DNA from: Bolinopsis microptera
Lineage: Eukaryota > Ctenophora > Tentaculata > Lobata > Bolinopsidae
DNA: 64,000 nucleotides
Assembly (NCBI RefSeq): GCF_026151205.1
Contig: NC_087073.1
Span: forward strand, 11,811,578 to 11,875,577
Direction of reading: 5' to 3'
Shown: piece by piece, positions 3,470 through 11,525 of the stretch
Numbering within the stretch: the stretch's first letter is position 1
How the letters are laid out: each line of letters starts with the position of its first letter
The notes under the pieces: generated by a model
Database searches by the model: none
The model's input: only the letters and a program-made list of their open reading frames with translations
Told to the model about the DNA's origin: nothing
Program-made: the position numbers and the translations under genes

Positions 3470-3550
3470 ATTTTACACAATATATAAGCTACAATAAATT
3501 ATCTATAAAATTTACATAAACAAACTTAAGAAACCTCCTAGCTCGTCTTC
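3470..3550 (-). mobile_element. 3' tail of retroelement copy B (left of the inserted DNA transposon)
   Basis: This segment matches 10243-10302 in the same orientation: GCTACAATAAAT, then ACATAAACAAACTTAAG, then GCTCGTCTTCT. In the uninterrupted copy C the sequence continues straight into GAGG(A)ATGAGATTGAAGG. Here that continuation is found only at 9612, on the far side of the DNA transposon. The two pieces therefore were one minus-strand retroelement copy before the insertion. Confidence 0.75.
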
Positions 3551-3963
3551 TAGTTAGGGAGGATATGTCAGTAATATCAATGGCGTGGGATTAGTTTAGT
3601 AAAAGCAATTTGACTTCAAGAATCACTAGTTGGAAGCCTAAACTAAAGGATTTTTATAGGTGGCAATTTTTATTTTGGCGGGAACACCCATTATATACGG
3701 GCCAAGCCCTTTTTTAAAAATCCGAAAAATCCGAAATGCTTATATTGATAGTAGACTAGGCTTGTGGGGTACCAAAAGAAAGGTAATGACCCACTGAAGT
3801 CAGGAAAAATAAATGTGGGGTTCCCTGACCTTCCATATGGGCGAAAACGGCGAAATCGACGAAAACGGGCGAGAAAATGACATTTTTTGAAAATTGTTCT
3901 ATACTAGGCATGTGGGGTACTAAAATAAGCGTAATGGTCCAGTGAGTGAATATAATCACCTTG
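3551..3963 (+). repeat. left terminal inverted repeat of the Academ-like element
   Basis: The outer ~220 bp is nearly identical, apart from small indels, to the reverse complement of 9396-9611. The inner ~190 bp, with two copies of a GTGGGGTAC...AAGCGTAATGG motif, is more diverged from the reverse complement of 7200-7389. The arm itself is uninterrupted, so it serves as the reference for the insertion in the right arm. Confidence 0.85.
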
Positions 3964-4485
3964 TGGGCCTCCAAAATGTATCAGGTGGGCATAAACAGCG
4001 TGACTAGATTCGGAAGAATACTTGAATGTTCTGCTTGCGCTCAGAGGGTTATTTCATTACAGAGCAGTGCATGCATTTATTAATTTATATTATATCCCGG
4101 GCGTATACTAAGTAGGGTGGAAATATCTCATAATATATATATACTAGAAAACCCGTGGTCACAGGGAAGAAGGTAATAGTATTTTTATCTATCTTTAGTA
4201 GTCAGTTTTTGTCGCATCAGAAAATATCCGTCACAACCAAAGATACAGCCGAATTAAATGTAAAACACGTTAAACACAACGTAATTACCACAAAATCGAT
4301 AAAAATCGCGCTCGTAAATATTTGCACGTGCAGGTTCGTGTACAGTGTACCAATCTTCGTTACCATGGTTACTATGCAATCTTTTGCTTTTTACGTGGGC
4401 GGTCGTACAGACAGACAGACAGAGATATATACAGCGATTCAGATGTAAATACTTCGGCGATGTGCGTACATGAACTCTTGGAGCA

Positions 4486-6144
4486 GCACCAGAAGCTGAG
4501 AGGAAAATATAAGGTGAGTGAACTATTACATTTTTACTGTTATCTATTTAAAAGTTCGAAACATCTTGTAGACACAAATAGAGGGAATGCTTAAAACCAC
4601 ATAATAATTCTCAGGCTTATCAAGCCACAGATGGTCTGCTGAACATCTGTGAACTTGGACGGGCGGCTGAGGACACATTCGTGACTGAAAGAATAATTGG
4701 AGATGAGCCGGTTTGGTCACCGATGAAGAAATTGAAGCTGTATCTTTTCAGAGACTCGGTTAAGGCTGTCAAGGTCAAGGTCGCCAAAGGATTTGTAATC
4801 ATGAAGGAGGAGAGGGGCATGATGACCAAATGGATGATAGCCTCAAAGAACAGGCCTGAAATAGACCTTCAGGCGATCATAGCCAGGCATGAGTTCACAG
4901 TCGTGCCAAGGGCAAGACTTTGGTGATCATTTCGTCAAGCGTGTAGCTGGTGAATCAAGAGGCTTTGAGAATGTCCTGCTAGTGTTTGATAGATATGATT
5001 TCCCCATGTCACTAAAAGCAATGACCAGAGATCAGAGGACTAATGGAAAACAAGTGCAGTTCAGACTAGCTCATAACACAGACATAGGAAAGCTCAAAAC
5101 AAAGATGCTACTCTCCCACGTCAAGACCAAAGTCACGCTTACGAAGATCCTAGCAGAACGGGCAGAGGAGGCATTCATAGCATCAGAAGCAAGCTACACC
5201 GTTGTCTATGGAGAAACTATCAAATCTAACATGGACATGATGGCAAATGAGACTGATCACACACAAGAGGAAGCTGATACCCTGATGATCAAGCTGGTCA
5301 ATGTCATTATATCAGCAGTGACTTCATCATACATTGTCGTGAGCTCTCCAGACACAGACGTGTTTGTTCTCCTTCTATTACCAGCTCTCACTGCTCATCA
5401 CCAGCGACAGACTGGAGTTGATGAATGGAATAAAATTGTCTTCAGAACAGGAACCAAAGCCAAGCACAGAGATCTGCCCATGGACTACTTTATTGGTAAA
5501 CTAGATGAACACCATGTAGCAGGTATGGTTGGGTTTCACTCCTTCAGTGGGTGCGATCAAATAGGAACGTACCATGGTATCTCCAAAGCGAGGCTCCTCA
5601 AGCTGTATCTAGCTTCTACATCTGATGAAGTGCGCTGCTTTAGTATGTTAGGTGAAGATGATGTAGATATGGAAGCGTTGAATGTTGGTTTGGAACAGTT
5701 CCTGATGAAGGCATACATGACTAAAGGTATTGTAGCTGTCAGTATTGGTGAATTACGGTGGCAATTATTCAGCAAGAAACAGCTCACCTCAGAGAAGTTA
5801 CCCCCGACAATGGGAGCACTGAAGTGGAAGATCCTCAGAAGCCATTATGTGACAATTGTCTGGAAGAGATCACTGCTGAGCTTTGAGGCTATTTACCCTG
5901 ACCCTCTCCAATTTGGGTGGTTACCAACCCTTCAGGGAATGCTCATCTAGCCTTGGTGCCTATCCTAACAGATGAGCCACCGGTGCCTGAAGCCACGCTG
6001 GACATGACGGATTGTGGTTGCAAGAAAACCAAGTGTATTGCAGGGTCATGTTCATGTAGAAAGGTTGGCTTGAGGTGCACTGCACTGTGCCGCTGTGTAG
6101 ATTGTTCAAACATCAGTGACCTTGACAGTGATCTAGAGATTTAG
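4486..6144 (+). pseudogene. PIN/XPG-like nuclease with CXC-type cysteine tail, transposon-borne, frameshifted
   Basis: A probable small exon ending at 4513 (GTGAGTG donor) is followed by an exon from 4615 (CTCAG acceptor) that opens with a conserved-looking stretch up to IARHEFTVVPRA (about 4915). An internal deletion with frame change then joins to DHFVKRVAGES (about 4927). The middle domain has spaced acidic residues typical of PIN/FEN nucleases: EEADT (about 5267-5281), SSPDTDVF (about 5342-5365) and SGCDQ (about 5546-5560). LRWQLFSKKQ and VWKRS blocks follow. Near 5917 a 1-nt shift leads to the tail, where about ten Cys in CxC spacing (6010-6112) form a CXC-like metal-binding region; the stop is at 6142-6144. 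It is the sole evident gene of the surrounding inverted-repeat element, so it is probably that element's transposase or nuclease. The deletion and frameshifts suggest this copy is dead. Confidence 0.65.
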
Positions 6145-6309
6145 ATTTTAGCTGACGTCTAATTATGAACAATGTGAAATCTGACACAAGTATACATGAT
6201 TTAGAGGTTAATTGTATTTGATGTTTTCAGTGAAATTTTGTTGTTTATTTGTAATGTTGTTTGTTTATTTCTAATAAGTTGATCAGGACATGGTTTTTAC
6301 ACACAACGG

Positions 6310-7069
6310 GGGGAATGCAACGTCAATTAATGTCAATTAATGTCAATTAATGTCAATTAATGTCAATGTCAGTTTTGCAAAATTTTGGAATACTGACATT
6401 AATTGACACAATATTTTTCGACCAAAGATTATGTAGTTCTACCATATTTTTAGCACTTTAGAATGTTTATATCATCAATTTATTCACTACTATCACATAT
6501 GGAAATGTGAAATGTGAAAAAAATTCAGATCATTAAACAATAAAACTAAAATAATACGGTTTTCCGAAATTTAATTTTCTTAAATGGGCGTGGCCATCCA
6601 AGGGCGTGGTTCTCAACATCATCAGAACTTAAAACCCACATTTAACGAAATGCCTTCATGACATTTATATTTGAATAACGAATCTTAAACAGCTAACATT
6701 ACTCCTTCATACTAAAAAAGCCGATTCTAGATATTTTACCTGTATAAGAAACCAATAAAATATGGGCGTGGCCGGTGGGGACCGAAGATGGAAGAGTTGG
6801 AAGCTGAAATTTGTTTTGGTGGTCTTTGAACCTAAGGATCAACAGATAAGAACATACTCATAATTATTCAAGGACATTTTGTTTTTTTGAACCGGTCTAA
6901 CTTACATAGACGTGAATATCTTGAATAATTATCGAATAATGATAATCTCAAATTTCAAGACAAATTAATGTCAATTAATGTCAATTAATGTCAATTAATG
7001 TCAATTAATGTCAATGTCAGTTTGGGGTTTTCATGGAATACTGACATTAATTGACGTTGCATTCCCCCC
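6310..7069. mobile_element. 760-bp TIR element (MITE) with repeat-array ends and 8-bp TSD
   Basis: The left end GGGGGGAATGCAACGTCAAT (6310) is the reverse complement of the right end finishing at 7069. CACACAAC occurs at 6302-6309 and again at 7070-7077, an 8-bp target duplication. Just inside each end lie tandem TGTCAATTAA decamers (about 6321-6365 and 6966-7014) and an inverted GACATTAATTGAC. No coding capacity is seen. An 8-bp duplication fits hAT, P or Merlin superfamilies, and the GG terminus would suit Merlin; this is inference. It sits inside the Academ-like element. Confidence 0.75.
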
Positions 7070-7199
7070 CACACAACTTTTGTCTTTGTTTTGTTTTCAA
7101 GAGGCAGGAAATAAAAATCATGAAAAACAAGAATTACTGCGTAACGTTCAATACAAAGTTTTTGGAAAATGTTTAGTCACTGTTATGAAACATTGTGAA

Positions 7200-7389
7200 A
7201 GGTGATTATAATCACTCACAGGACCATTACGCTTCTTTTGGTACCCCACATGGCTAGTATAGAACAATTTTCAAACAAGGCAATTTTCTTGCCAATTTTC
7301 GCCTTTTATGCCCGTATGGTGTATTGGGAAGAGCCAAACTTATTTTCACTGAGTTCAGTGGGCCAATACCTTTCTTTTGGTACCCCACA
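7200..7389 (-). repeat. inner part of right terminal inverted repeat, Academ-like element
   Basis: The reverse complement aligns with 3766-3963 (AAAAGAAAGGTA, AAAATTGTTCTATACTAG, AAGCGTAATGGTCC). The arm is broken at 7389 by the LINE insertion and resumes at 9403. Confidence 0.75.
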
Positions 7390-9402
7390 TTATTATTATC
7401 AAAACATGTCAATCTTACAAATGTCAACAATCCTAAAATAATTTAGAACCTGAACGTGATCCTTTGTAAGATTATATGTCCCAAAAGTCAAATTGACTTG
7501 TACTCAAGTATAAAATCGAATAATTTACTCCAATAACCACGGTTACTAGCAAGTTCTCTCAAATGAAGAATATCATCATACGACTCCAGCAAGATGAAAC
7601 GCTTCCAGAGGTCAACCTTCAGGTGGTGTAGGAGGTTACGTCTGTGAGCCCCGAGTCTACCAACTTCACTACACATCTCGACAGCAAAGCACAGAGCAGC
7701 TTGAGCTGGTGATCTTTCATCGCTCCTCAGTATGTGTCCTAGCATCTTCCACCTAGATAACTCAGCACGCTCGGACATAGGGGTAGAGTTACTCTGTTTG
7801 TAGAGGGTATCTTTGGACATCATACTGCGTGGCCAGCTGACATTCATGATCTTTCTGAGGTGGTTACGGTGACATGCATCTAATTTGTCCCAGTACGATT
7901 TAGGCATTCCCCAGCAACTAGAGATATACATGAGGATAGATACTACTTGGGCCTCATAGACCTTCAGCTTCTTCTGTAGGGGGATCTTACTCTGGCACCA
8001 GACCTTCTTGAAGTTCTGGAATGCTACATTGGCTAACATGATTCTTCTGGTGACATCTTTCCTACTTTCTAGCAGAGAACCCAACAACTTGCTACTGCAC
8101 CATTCTTCATTCATTCTAAGGGGTTTACCATCATCCATGACCTCATCTTTCCCAGCTATGTAGACGTGTACAAACTCTGTCTTCGATTCATTAATATTCA
8201 GATTCCAATCTTTGAACACCTTAGTAGCGATAGGGAGGAGGGCTTCTAGAGTATCTTTGTCTTCACCAAGATAGTCGATGTCATCAGAGTAGGCATCTTC
8301 TTCAGGCATGCCGCTAGGGTTAATAGGAGGGGTTGGGCGCAGCGTCACGGCACGCAGGTGGTAGCAGGCACCAGCTAGAGTGATTGTGAAACAGAGGCCT
8401 GAAACGCTATCACCTTGGGGTCCTCCATTGGTGCTGATGAATTCAAGGGAGGTAGCGCTGTTGAGTCGCACCTTGATCTTGGTGTTGCTCAGGAGGAATC
8501 TCACTAGTCTGATCTCATCTCTTGTGCACCCTGCGTCCTCTAGGAGGTTGAGCACAGTCTGCCTACTGATAGTATCGAAGGCACTGGACATGTCTAGGCC
8601 CATCTTGTGGAAAGACCACTCTCTTTCTTTTACGATGCTGATCAACATACGGTGACACCATACCAGGTCTCCACAGCTTCTCTTCTGCTTGTAGGCAGCT
8701 TGCCATGGACCTGTGTAAGCGTCTACCTTTGCTTCAATTCTCCTGAGTGTAATGAGGGATAGCAGCTTACGAGCACAGTTACATAATGTCAGGGGTCTGA
8801 GGCTTTTCAGTTCACCAGGAGTCTTGCCAGGCTTTTGAAGAGGGGTGATGAAACATTCTCCGACAGCGTCAAGGAACAGGTTCTCTTCAAAGCAGGTGTT
8901 GATGATTTTGGCGTAATGGACACATAGCGCACTCCCACCATACTTGAGGAGCTCATTGGGGGTATTGTCAGGTCCATTGGCTTTGCCGTTCTTGAGGCGT
9001 TTAGCAGCGGTTTTTACCTCATATTCTGTGATAGGGCAGTCGAGGGGAGAAGTGGGACCTTCAAACGGATCAAGGGCAGGTTCATCTCCAGTCAGCTGTT
9101 CTTCATACCAATCACGGAGTACTTCAGCTTTAGCGAGGTCTGTACCAATGGGGTACCCATCCTTATTGTGGACAACTATAGGCTTTGTCTCTTTGGTCTT
9201 AGCTAAGGATCTCACAGCTTCGAACATTTGACGCGTGTCGTCAGTTGATGAAATTTCTTCAGCTAACTGGTCAGCCTTAGCACACTCTAGCTCCTTCAGT
9301 CTCTTTTTGATGTCTTTACCGAGCTTATTTCTCCGTCCTCGCAGTACAGAGCTATCACAGGGCTTGTTGGTGCTTGCCAGGGCAAGGCGTATATCGTGTC
9401 GT
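7390..9402 (-). mobile_element. 5'-truncated LINE with reverse transcriptase ORF, flanked by 10-bp TSD
   Basis: GTACCCCACA is present once in the intact left arm (as its reverse complement at 3763-3772) but twice in the right arm, at 7380-7389 and 9403-9412, exactly flanking this block. On the minus strand the block opens mid-ORF at 9402 and ends after the stop at 7488 with a ~95-bp tail finishing in TGATAATAATAAT. That is the pattern of target-primed insertion with 5' truncation. The reading frame runs uninterrupted for about 640 codons: linker, RT motif A (GLDMSSAFDT), motif B (GGPQGDSVSG), motif C (YSDD, in place of the usual YADD/FADD), then a thumb and C-terminal region. No endonuclease domain remains. 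The apparent first codon lies in flanking transposon sequence, so there is no genuine start. The clade was not resolved. Confidence 0.85.
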
Positions 9403-9611
9403 GTACCCCACAAGCCTAGTCTACTATCAATATAAGCATTTCGGATTTTTCGGATTTAAAAAAAAGGGCGTGGCCCGTATAGGGGTGTTCCCGCCAAAAT
9501 AAAAATTGCCACCTATAAAAATCCTTTAGTTTAGGCTTCCAACTAGTGATTCTTGAAGTCAAATTGCTTTTACTAAACTAATCCCACGCCATTACATACC
9601 CTCCCTAACTA
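9403..9611 (-). repeat. outer part of right terminal inverted repeat, Academ-like element
   Basis: The reverse complement is nearly identical to 3551-3772, including TGGCGTGGGATTAG and GGTGGCAATTTTTATTTTGG. It ends with CCCTAACTA at 9611. Confidence 0.85.
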
Positions 9612-9745
9612 TTCTGAGGTATGAGATTGAAGGATACGTCATCCAGTCTAAGGTGCTGGCCTTTTTGTCTTCCTTTGATTCCACTGAGTGCTATGAGTGT
9701 GCTTCGTAGCAGTTCAAACCTGAATCGTGTTCTGATTTCTGAGGC
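9612..9745 (-). pseudogene. retroelement copy B, C-terminal fragment (right of the inserted transposon)
   Basis: On the minus strand it reads IRTRFRFELLRSTLIALSGI, then a basic KGRQKGQHL and DVSFNLIPQ. This closely matches copy C at 10300-10430. The sequence that should follow it (GCTCGTCTTC and the 3' tail) is at 3470-3550. Confidence 0.75.
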
Positions 9746-10239: not shown

Positions 10240-10640
10240 AGCTACAATAAATCGTCTATAAAATTTACATAAACAAACTTAAGAGACCTCAAAGCTCGTC
10301 TTCTGAGGAATGAGATTGAAGGATACGTCAACCAGTCCAAGGTGCTGGGCTTTTTGTCTTCCTCTGATTCCCCTGAGTGCTATGAGTGTGCTTCGTAGCA
10401 GATCAAACCTGAATCGTGTTCTGATGTGATTTTTGACCTGGCTCTTAGCTTCTTTATTGTGGTCAGCTATCCTTTCAGAAATACGATCTACAAACACAGT
10501 GCAGAGTGGGCCCATACCTCCGGATGTTGTAAAAACTAGTGGGACAAAGGACCCTTTCTCTGACTGAACGGCTCTCTCTTTTGCTATTGAATCAGATAAT
10601 TTATTCATTGGAAGATTGGGGAGACCTAGAATGAACTTGT
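10240..10640 (-). pseudogene. PHD/RT retroelement copy C, C-terminal fragment with uninterrupted 3' end
   Basis: The minus frame reads EKGSFVPLVFTTSGGMGPL, then VFVDRISERIADHNKE, IRTRFRFDLLRSTLIALRGI, and the end DVSFNLIPQKTSFEVS with a stop at about 10279. This is the conserved C-terminal block seen in pieces at 3100-3400 (copy A) and 9612-9745 (copy B). The 3' flank to 10240 is the empty-site reference for the transposon inserted in copy B. The frame continues upstream to 10731, but without recognisable family sequence. Confidence 0.75.
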
Positions 10641-10891
10641 TATCGGTTTTAAGAAGTGATTTAAATAGTAAAAATTTGCAAATGGACAACTTGCATGAAT
10701 TGAACGAAATTATAGATATAACTGCATGCAACAGATGTTGGGAAAATCTTTTTCAAGGGTACAGTTTGGCGCATTAAGGTATTTTTAAGAATCATTTTTG
10801 TCGGTAAGATCCTGTTTTATAATAATTATATAACAAAAGTGCTGCAAAGCAGCTTACGCAAAATTAATTTATTATGCATTAGCGATGAACT

Positions 10892-11009
10892 TGTATCACG
10901 TCGTGATCCCCATTGTCGTTTCGCTATAGTAGAGTTTCACTATAGTAGAGTTTCTACGATACAGGGGAGCCGCGCACTCGTGCGCGGCGGGTCATACAAC
11001 GTATGACAA
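10892..11009 (+). repeat. GC-rich hairpin repeat, copy 1
   Basis: The order is TATCACGTCGTGAT, a TCGC/TTTCGCTATAGTAGAG stretch with an internal duplication, ACGATACAGGGGAGCC, the self-complementary GCGCACTCGTGCGC, then GTCATACAACGTATGAC, which is also self-complementary. The same order occurs at 11416-11525 and inverted at 46006-46110. Confidence 0.8.
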
Positions 11010-11415
11010 CGATGAACAACCTCCTGTCAGGTCTTTTGGACACGCGTGAAAATTTATATTAGTTTACCGATCTGCCTCAGCTCAGGTTTAGCAACTAAAA
11101 AATTGTTAATAAAACGTATTATATATTAGAAAACGTCACTGCTTTAACGCGCATTTTATGCTTGCATCGGTTCGAGATCGCAAAACGCGCGCCGAGTTGG
11201 ACGTGACTCGTCGACGGTATTGAAAAAATATAATTATATTACCGCAATCAATTTTTAATTATTGATCATGCAAAATAGGAAATTGAAACTAGTGAAAAAA
11301 GCGCCGTGCATAAAAACTTGCTTGCCAATTTAACATTTCAATCGTTATTTATTTTTTCAAATCCCTTAAATTAATCAAAAAGAAGCAAAATCAAACAATA
11401 ACTTAATTATATTTT

Positions 11416-11525
11416 GTATCACGTGGTGACCCCCACGGTCGCTTCACTATAGTCTTCACTATAGTCTTCGACGCTACAGGGGAAGCCGCGCACTTCGTGC
11501 GCGGCGGGTCATACAACGTATGACA
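11416..11525 (+). repeat. GC-rich hairpin repeat, copy 2
   Basis: It has the same module order as copy 1, with compensating change inside the hairpin (GCGCACTTCGTGCGC) and the same TCATACAACGTATGA palindrome. Confidence 0.8.

What the first reader, a model, noticed from the sequence alone, without database searches (positions are those of the whole stretch)
3551..9611. Academ-like transposon whose only evident gene is a PIN/XPG-type nuclease with a CXC cysteine tail
Long inverted ends, a 3-bp duplication and an intact empty-site sequence (copy C at 10279-10310) define the element. Inside is a protein family with FEN/XPG-like acidic signatures (EEADT, SPDTDV, SGCD) and a CxC-rich C-terminus. 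This family is common as 'uncharacterised protein' in invertebrate databases; its placement inside a defined transposon would explain that abundance and assign it as a transposase/nuclease. The Academ link rests on the nuclease type and duplication size, and is inference.
Basis: partly seen in the sequence, partly recalled or inferred. Interest (0 to 1): 0.8.

Follow-up and report, generated by a model that had tools for sequence, protein, structure and literature searches.

The report
Broken transposon with flap-type nuclease
This is a broken copy of a jumping gene whose fuller relatives appear to make one large protein that joins a DNA-moving enzyme to a flap-cutting nuclease and a cysteine-rich tail; it helps to explain some unnamed proteins but seems to belong to a kind of transposon already known.

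Summary
The element is real and its ends are exact: 3551-9611, long inverted ends, 3-bp TTC duplication; the joined flanks match the paralogous empty site at 174/186 positions with no gap. The nuclease call holds: the predicted fold of a sister copy (98% identical) matches human EXO1 (Z 15.8), FEN1, XRN1 and XPG; the cysteine tail is a CXC domain. "Only evident gene" is wrong. The window copy is a wreck: against its sister it lacks 1.6 kb of coding DNA and the first nuclease aspartate, and holds a 762-bp MITE and a 2-kb LINE with a reverse transcriptase. Fuller relatives in the same genome carry one long frame: Cys/His region, DDE-like region, FEN/XPG nuclease, CXC tail. Wherever both ends were read, the duplication is 3 bp (16 of 16). 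In one family both halves are under purifying selection (dN/dS 0.09 and 0.13). This fits AcademX (nuclease, 3-4 bp duplications; PMC10045372), but no reference Academ sequence was compared, and the DDE fold is only weakly supported (Hermes, Z 7.2). Likely mechanism: DDE cuts and joins; the flap nuclease processes the other strand.

The parts
3548..3550 (.). left copy of the 3-bp target-site duplication TTC
3551..9611 (+). whole element, 6061 bp (3268 bp without the two nested insertions and their duplications)
3551..3962 (+). left terminal inverted repeat (about 400 bp in sister L009: 356 of 388 aligned positions identical between its two ends)
3752..3797 (+). 46-bp subterminal repeat, copy 1
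3900..3945 (+). 46-bp subterminal repeat, copy 2 (80% identical)
4441..4630 (+). 190 bp that stand where L009 has 1588 bp of mostly DDE-region coding sequence; no other match found in the genome
4631..4911 (+). remnant of the end of the DDE region and the start of the nuclease part
4883..5950 (+). FEN/XPG-type nuclease domain, 355-aa frame; lacks the 197 bp with the first Asp that L009 has
5902..6144 (+). C-terminal piece with the CXC (Tesmin/TSO1-like) tail, nine cysteines; frame shifted by one base relative to the nuclease frame
6308..7069 (.). nested MITE (762 bp, ends GGGGGGAATGCAACG), 8-bp duplication CACACAAC at 6300-6307 and 7070-7077
7199..7389 (-). inner part of the right terminal inverted repeat
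7390..9402 (-). nested LINE, 2013 bp, tail (GATAATAATAA) at the 7390 side, 10-bp duplication GTACCCCACA at 7380-7389 and 9403-9412
7488..9455 (-). 655-aa open frame with reverse transcriptase; codons beyond 9402 are read-in from the inverted repeat
9403..9611 (-). outer part of the right terminal inverted repeat
9612..9614 (.). right copy of the TSD TTC
10240..10425 (.). paralogous empty site (duplication of the flanks)

Best explanation
The element is an inactive, internally deleted and twice-invaded copy of a cut-and-paste DNA transposon of the AcademX type. Its fuller relatives have one long open frame (1342 to 1557 aa, stop to stop): an N-terminal Cys/His region (seen by eye), a DDE (RNase H-like) transposase domain with a large helical insertion, a FEN/EXO1/XPG-family nuclease and a single nine-cysteine CXC tail. 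Shown: element, ends, TSD, nuclease fold and acidic motifs, CXC signature, the order in one frame, selection on both parts in one family. Supported weakly: the DDE fold and its D-D-E residues. Inferred: the N-terminal region and/or the CXC tail bind the outer 150-160 bp of each end; the DDE domain cuts and transfers the 3' ends to target bonds 3 bp apart; the flap nuclease works on the complementary 5' strand, either cutting it at excision or trimming a 5' flap after joining; repair of the gaps leaves the 3-bp TSD.
For: TSD and empty site; 3-bp TSD in 16 of 16 elements with both ends read, at least four families. Nuclease: Foldseek best EXO1 E 4.7e-6, 29 matches at E <= 0.001, all EXO1, XRN1/XRN2(Rat1), FEN1, Rad2 or mycobacterial and plastid relatives; VIA-align Z 15.8, 266 residues, rmsd 3.7; catalytic-type acidic positions kept in 9 of 9 rows except the first Asp, 8 of 9; weak profile hits to EXO1 (E 0.02) and to the LIN54 CXC (E 0.046). 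DDE: candidate D and D in 6 of 6 rows that reach them, E in 9 of 9; VIA-align rows 1-5 are all Hermes, Z 7.2-6.0, colinear over model 1-469 against 165-609, next row 4.8. One frame: 1438 aa (L010, L011), 1557 aa (L033), 1342 aa (L032). 49 of 70 DDE-region loci have a nuclease locus downstream on the same strand within 5 kb, 1 of 70 in the reverse order. dN/dS 0.094 (DDE), 0.128 (nuclease) for L033/L034. Eight of eight window-family copies without the gene share with L009 only the outer 146-161 bp on the left and up to 151 bp on the right. Literature: AcademX = nuclease and 3-4 bp TSD (PMC10045372, passage).
Against: The DDE model is poor (mean pLDDT 56.5), Foldseek finds nothing for it (best E 0.06), a profile search of the PDB finds nothing meaningful, and Z below 8 can be a common arrangement. 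No reference Academ protein could be compared; Kojima 2020 and Yuan & Wessler 2011 are not held. No full-length protein of the window family was found in the assembly; the architecture is read from families about 35% identical or less and from L009, which has a one-base frame break. The tail lacks the Tyr that LIN54 uses to read DNA. Twenty-one of 70 DDE loci had no nuclease match within 5 kb, and 38 of 87 nuclease loci had no DDE match upstream.
Confidence: 0.75

Rival explanations
1. The nuclease-CXC gene is a host gene or cargo captured by an unrelated transposon, and the nuclease plays no part in transposition.
For: The window copy holds only this gene of its own; window-family copies with the same ends exist without it.
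Against: It lies in one frame behind the DDE region in families only 20-33% identical to L009; DDE and nuclease loci stand in the same order at 49 of 70 loci; nuclease part dN/dS 0.128 in L033/L034.
Confidence: 0.07
2. A transposon of another 3-bp-TSD superfamily (PIF/Harbinger-like) that has gained a nuclease.
For: 3-bp TSD.
Against: TSDs (TTC, AGA, CAC, CTG, AAA and others) are not confined to the TWA type that I recall for PIF/Harbinger; no Pfam transposase family was reported for the 1438-aa protein at E <= 10 (HMMER filters on).
Confidence: 0.06
3. A separate, undescribed superfamily with the AcademX formula (DDE plus FEN/XPG) that is not monophyletic with Academ.
For: No reference Academ sequence could be compared; no held paper contains CXC domain, PIN domain, transposase and transposon together (0 papers).
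Against: TSD length and nuclease type both fit AcademX (PMC10045372); the mean Academ length of 5565 bp in bivalves (PMC10294476, passages) lies within the 3.6-7.8 kb of the coding copies measured here (some of them shortened).
Confidence: 0.12

Closest known systems
AcademX lineage of the Academ superfamily (Kojima 2020, recalled, not read; cited in PMC10045372)
   Same: 3-bp TSD; nuclease of XPG type (the XPG label for AcademX is recalled; PMC10045372 says nuclease); DDD/E-type transposase expected
   Different: Reference sequences not compared; whether described Academ proteins end in a CXC tail could not be checked
AcademH lineage
   Same: same superfamily by name
   Different: helicase and 9-10 bp TSDs (PMC10045372, passage); here no helicase family reported at E <= 10 and 3-bp TSDs
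hAT transposase Hermes
   Same: colinear weak fold match over the RNase H core with inserted helical domain; a G-x-x-H kept in 6 of 6 rows, 28 residues after the second Asp in L009, resembles the C/DxxH that PMC10045372 names for hAT and others
   Different: 8-bp TSD in hAT and no FEN/XPG nuclease (both recalled); Z only 7.2
EXO1 / FEN1 / XPG (Rad2) nucleases
   Same: fold, acidic series and the SGCD-helix region
   Different: about 7-14% identity in the structural alignments; stands behind a transposase-like domain and before a CXC tail
LIN54 and MSL2 CXC domains
   Same: nine-cysteine CXC pattern (PMC4974476, passages)
   Different: single CXC (as MSL2) rather than tandem; residue at the LIN54 Tyr position is S, Q, T, N or R in 8 of 8 aligned tails
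Tn7 TnsA-TnsB pair (recalled)
   Same: working analogy: DDE enzyme for one strand, second nuclease for the other
   Different: different nuclease fold, bacterial, separate proteins (recalled)

Membership tests
Academ superfamily, AcademX lineage | target-site duplications of 3 or 4 bp | tested here: met
   3 bp in 16 of 16 elements with both ends read; empty site shown for the window copy
Academ superfamily, AcademX lineage | encodes an XPG-type nuclease | tested here: met
   FEN/EXO1/XPG fold, Z 15.8 to EXO1 and 12.1 to XPG; acidic positions
Academ superfamily, AcademX lineage | DDD/E transposase | tested here: inconclusive
   conserved D-D-E candidates and Hermes in rows 1-5 (Z 7.2-6.0), but model confidence low and no Foldseek or profile hit
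Academ superfamily, AcademX lineage | sequence kinship with reference Academ transposases | not testable with these tools
   no Repbase; Kojima 2020 and Yuan & Wessler 2011 not held
Academ superfamily, AcademH lineage | 9-10 bp TSD | tested here: not met
   3-bp TSDs
Academ superfamily, AcademH lineage | helicase domain | tested here: not met
   no helicase family reported by Pfam at E <= 10 in the 1438-aa L010 frame or the two L009 frames (HMMER filters on)
hAT | 8-bp TSD (recalled) | tested here: not met
   3-bp TSDs
PIF/Harbinger | 3-bp TSD of TWA type (recalled) | tested here: not met
   TTC, TAC, AGA, CAA, AAA, CAC, ATT, CTG and others among the TSDs
FEN/XPG nuclease superfamily | fold and catalytic acidic residues | tested here: met
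   on the sister copy and relatives; the window copy itself lacks the first Asp
CXC (Tesmin/TSO1-like) domain | nine-cysteine CXC motif above the Pfam gathering score | tested here: met
   30.9 bits against cut-off 23.5; nine Cys by direct count in the window and L009 tails
LIN54-type CXC DNA readers | tandem CXC with minor-groove Tyr | tested here: not met
   single CXC; no Tyr at that position in 8 of 8 aligned tails

The most novel reading that the evidence does not exclude
A two-nuclease transposase on one chain: the DDE domain makes the 3' cuts and joins, while the FEN/XPG domain cuts or trims the non-transferred 5' strand, as TnsA does in Tn7 but with a flap-nuclease fold, and the CXC tail (a fold known from dosage-compensation and cell-cycle DNA readers) holds the transposon ends. 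If so, unnamed proteins that combine PIN and CXC domains are transposases with a second-strand nuclease of their own.
Probability: 0.3. Interest if true: 0.65.

Novelty: new member of a known kind. Interest (0 to 1): 0.42.

Why it matters
It turns a puzzling gene fragment into a transposase fragment with a defined element, duplication and architecture, so that proteins of this kind can be annotated as transposon-derived. It also gives a natural test of what an XPG-type nuclease does in transposition: near-identical copies exist in one genome (99.4-99.8% over 5.65-5.78 kb), two of them with open 1438-aa frames, and short shared ends have been outlined.

Tried and rejected
Nuclease alone as the transposase: rejected, since fuller relatives carry a DDE-like half in the same frame. 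Pfam gave no nuclease or transposase family above its cut-off; a PDB sequence search with the 1438-aa protein gave one chance-level hit (E 0.052). A profile of the DDE region found nothing meaningful in the PDB; Foldseek likewise. Close relatives in viral contigs (with L029) and in prokaryote genomes (with the L010 nuclease part): none at E <= 1e-3; both scans reach close relatives only. The 46-bp subterminal repeat as an essential end signal: not supported, because the eight copies without the gene lack it (up to 14 mismatches allowed). The 190 bp at 4441-4630 as a piece of the parent element: open; no other match found. Paper searches: (one paper; its Academ match is 'Academic'; 20 of 352 listed; none; 20 of 34 listed; 20 of 527; 2; 20 of 63): nothing on this architecture in what was listed; 80 (2); 81 (1; passages seen: Academ named in a class list); 91 (AcademX in one held paper). 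PMC9143410 (passages) and PMC10799480 (passages) mention Academ without this architecture.

Rows dropped or limited: TSDs were read only where both ends were in hand. Of the four second-family loci fetched, the C10 copy was left out because its left end was not resolved; the C5 copy has a damaged left tip and its TSD CTG is read on that assumption. L030, L032, L033, L034 and L038 show one end only, L029 and L035 were not resolved, and the second copy in L037 runs off the stretch. Two paired elements (C1, C4) were fetched at one end only and not read for TSD. In some searches the window element was cut one base short on the left (6060 instead of 6061); TSDs and counts are not affected. In one search the alignment inside 4441-4630 is forced between unrelated sequences, so its 98.9% identity includes some chance columns. 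The locus counts are lower bounds from three single-protein queries.
Full report
What is there. The element runs from 3551 to 9611 between TTC duplications. Its ends are inverted repeats: 111 bp at 100% and 79 bp at 96%, with weaker inner blocks. The inner block on the right lies at 7199-7389 and the outer part at 9403-9611, because a LINE has landed in the right repeat. Joined flanks with one TTC align with the paralogous empty site at 10240-10425 at 174 of 186 positions and no gap. This fixes the duplication at 3 bp.

What the window copy has lost and gained. Against the sister copy L009 (C7:11282872-11287729; 98% identical in the nuclease), the window copy has 770 bp more (a 762-bp MITE plus 8-bp duplication) and 2023 bp more (a 2013-bp LINE plus 10-bp duplication). 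It lacks 1588 bp, mostly DDE-region coding sequence, where it has 190 other bp, and it lacks 197 bp of the nuclease. That these are losses is inferred: both stretches have counterparts in the second family. The LINE frame is a reverse transcriptase (RVT_1, E 5.9e-19) with nine further full-length or nearly full-length relatives at 98-99% identity. The MITE end pattern has 207 matches in the genome and none in the control.

The gene in fuller relatives. A second family (35% identical in the nuclease) has a single 1438-aa frame in L010 and L011. Others have frames of 1557 aa (L033), 1448 aa (L034, cut by the stretch end) and 1342 aa (L032). Frames are stop to stop. The order is an N-terminal Cys/His region (C-x2-C ... 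Y-H-x2-C, by eye), a DDE-like region, a nuclease, a CXC tail. At 49 of 70 loci with a DDE-region match, a nuclease match follows on the same strand within 5 kb; in the reverse order this holds for 1 of 70. Twenty-one of 70 DDE loci had no such nuclease match and 38 of 87 nuclease loci no DDE match upstream (lower bounds). Between L033 and L034 dN/dS is 0.126 over 1448 codons: 0.176 N-terminal, 0.094 DDE, 0.128 nuclease, 0.183 CXC on 44 codons. L030/L034 and L030/L033 give 0.124 and 0.136, L010/L011 0.096 on four changes; other pairs are higher (L035/L036 0.45, L032/L031 0.60, window/L009 0.60 on six changes), which I read as decaying copies. In the L033/L034 family both catalytic parts have evolved under constraint.

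The nuclease. The predicted structure of the L009 nuclease-CXC piece (9 sequences; mean pLDDT 75.1, pTM 0.77) matches human EXO1 best in Foldseek (E 4.7e-6), then XRN1/XRN2, FEN1 and Rad2. VIA-align gives Z 15.8 over 266 residues to EXO1, 14.7 to FEN1, 14.4 to XRN1, 12.1 to XPG. The acidic series is kept: the Asp of I-I/V-D (8 of 9; Val in L036), D/E-x-Y (9 of 9; 5 D, 4 E), E/D-A-D, D-x-D and G-C-D (9 of 9). Matching these to EXO1's catalytic residues is from recall. The CXC tail was modelled with low confidence.

The CXC tail. Pfam TCR scores above its gathering cut-off in the window, L009 and L010 frames. A weak profile hit to LIN54 (E 0.046) covers the tail. LIN54 reads DNA with one Tyr per CXC, and MSL2 has a single CXC that inserts an arginine (PMC4974476, passages). 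In 8 of 8 aligned tails the Tyr position holds S, Q, T, N or R, so the LIN54 way of reading is not conserved; DNA binding by the tail is inferred.

The DDE region. Candidate residues are D13 (AIDN), the Asp of LDMQLY, and E428 (DHAMEQ) of the L009 piece: Asp in 6 of 6 rows that reach the first two positions, Glu in 9 of 9. The model is weak (pLDDT 56.5), Foldseek finds nothing and a PDB profile search nothing meaningful. VIA-align's first five rows are all Hermes transposase (Z 7.2 to 6.0), the best colinear from model 1-469 to Hermes 165-609, and the next row has 4.8. This is support, not proof.

A family of transposons. The window-family ends give 27 matches, forming 12 paired elements and three single ends. 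Ten paired elements were read and all ten have 3-bp TSDs: TTC, TAC, AGA, CAA, AAA, CAC, TAA, ATA, ATA, ATT. Of these ten only the window copy and L009 carry the gene. The other eight share just the outer 146-161 bp (left) and up to 151 bp (right) with L009 and lack the 46-bp subterminal repeats, so about 160 bp per end seems enough for mobilisation (inference). The second family gives TTT, AAA and CTG; L037, L031 and L036 give TAA, ACA and TAG. In all, 16 of 16 elements with both ends read have a 3-bp TSD.

How it most likely works. The DDE half would bind, cut and transfer the 3' ends to phosphates 3 bp apart. FEN/EXO1/XPG enzymes act at junctions of single- and double-stranded DNA (established knowledge), so the likely task is the non-transferred strand: second-strand cleavage at excision, or removal of the 5' flap after joining. 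PMC10045372 links the different TSD lengths of AcademH and AcademX to helicase and nuclease (passage), in keeping with a role at the ends. The choice between the two steps is open.

Comparison with what is known. By TSD and nuclease the element fits AcademX (PMC10045372, passage). PMC10294476 (passages) treats Academ as a DDE/D superfamily with mean length 5565 bp in bivalves. Kojima 2020, which defines the two lineages, is not held, so sequence kinship was not tested. No held paper combined CXC domain, PIN domain, transposase and transposon, and AcademX appears in one held paper. This does not show that the CXC tail is unknown, as Repbase entries were not searched. I rate it a new member of a known kind.

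Noticed in passing
window 7390-9402 (-): LINE inserted in the right inverted repeat with a 10-bp duplication; ten places in the genome (this one included) hold its reverse transcriptase at full or nearly full length and 98-100% identity
   Followed up: partly
window 6308-7069: MITE with ends GGGGGGAATGCAACG, tandem ATTAATGTCA units and an 8-bp duplication; its 35-bp end (up to 2 mismatches) has 207 matches in the genome
   Followed up: partly
G000 contig C7: 7 of 12 paired window-family elements lie on C7 (20.1 of 264.7 Mb; binomial p about 8e-6); the seven have distinct flanks, so local hopping or a special chromosome is possible
   Followed up: no
L018, L020, L021, L022, L023, L024: Six of the eight window-family copies without the transposase-nuclease gene hold a related frame of 126-150 aa; whether it is a gene was not tested
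   Followed up: no
window 4441-4630: 190 bp without another match found in the genome, holding a GT...AG intron-like stretch (AAG|gtgagt ... ctcag|GCTT); the bases just before it (4380-4434) match many places
   Followed up: partly
L010 about 1038-1761: array of 42-bp tandem units inside the second family's element, upstream of the transposase frame
   Followed up: no
G000:C7:9263671-9265617: relative of the DDE region with many in-frame stops, an old decayed copy
   Followed up: no
L036 2967-4778: nuclease copy with Val in place of the first conserved Asp, framed by inverted ends and a TAG duplication
   Followed up: no
window 10891-10930 and 11414-11453: 40-bp direct repeat at 85% identity, 523 bp apart
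   Followed up: no
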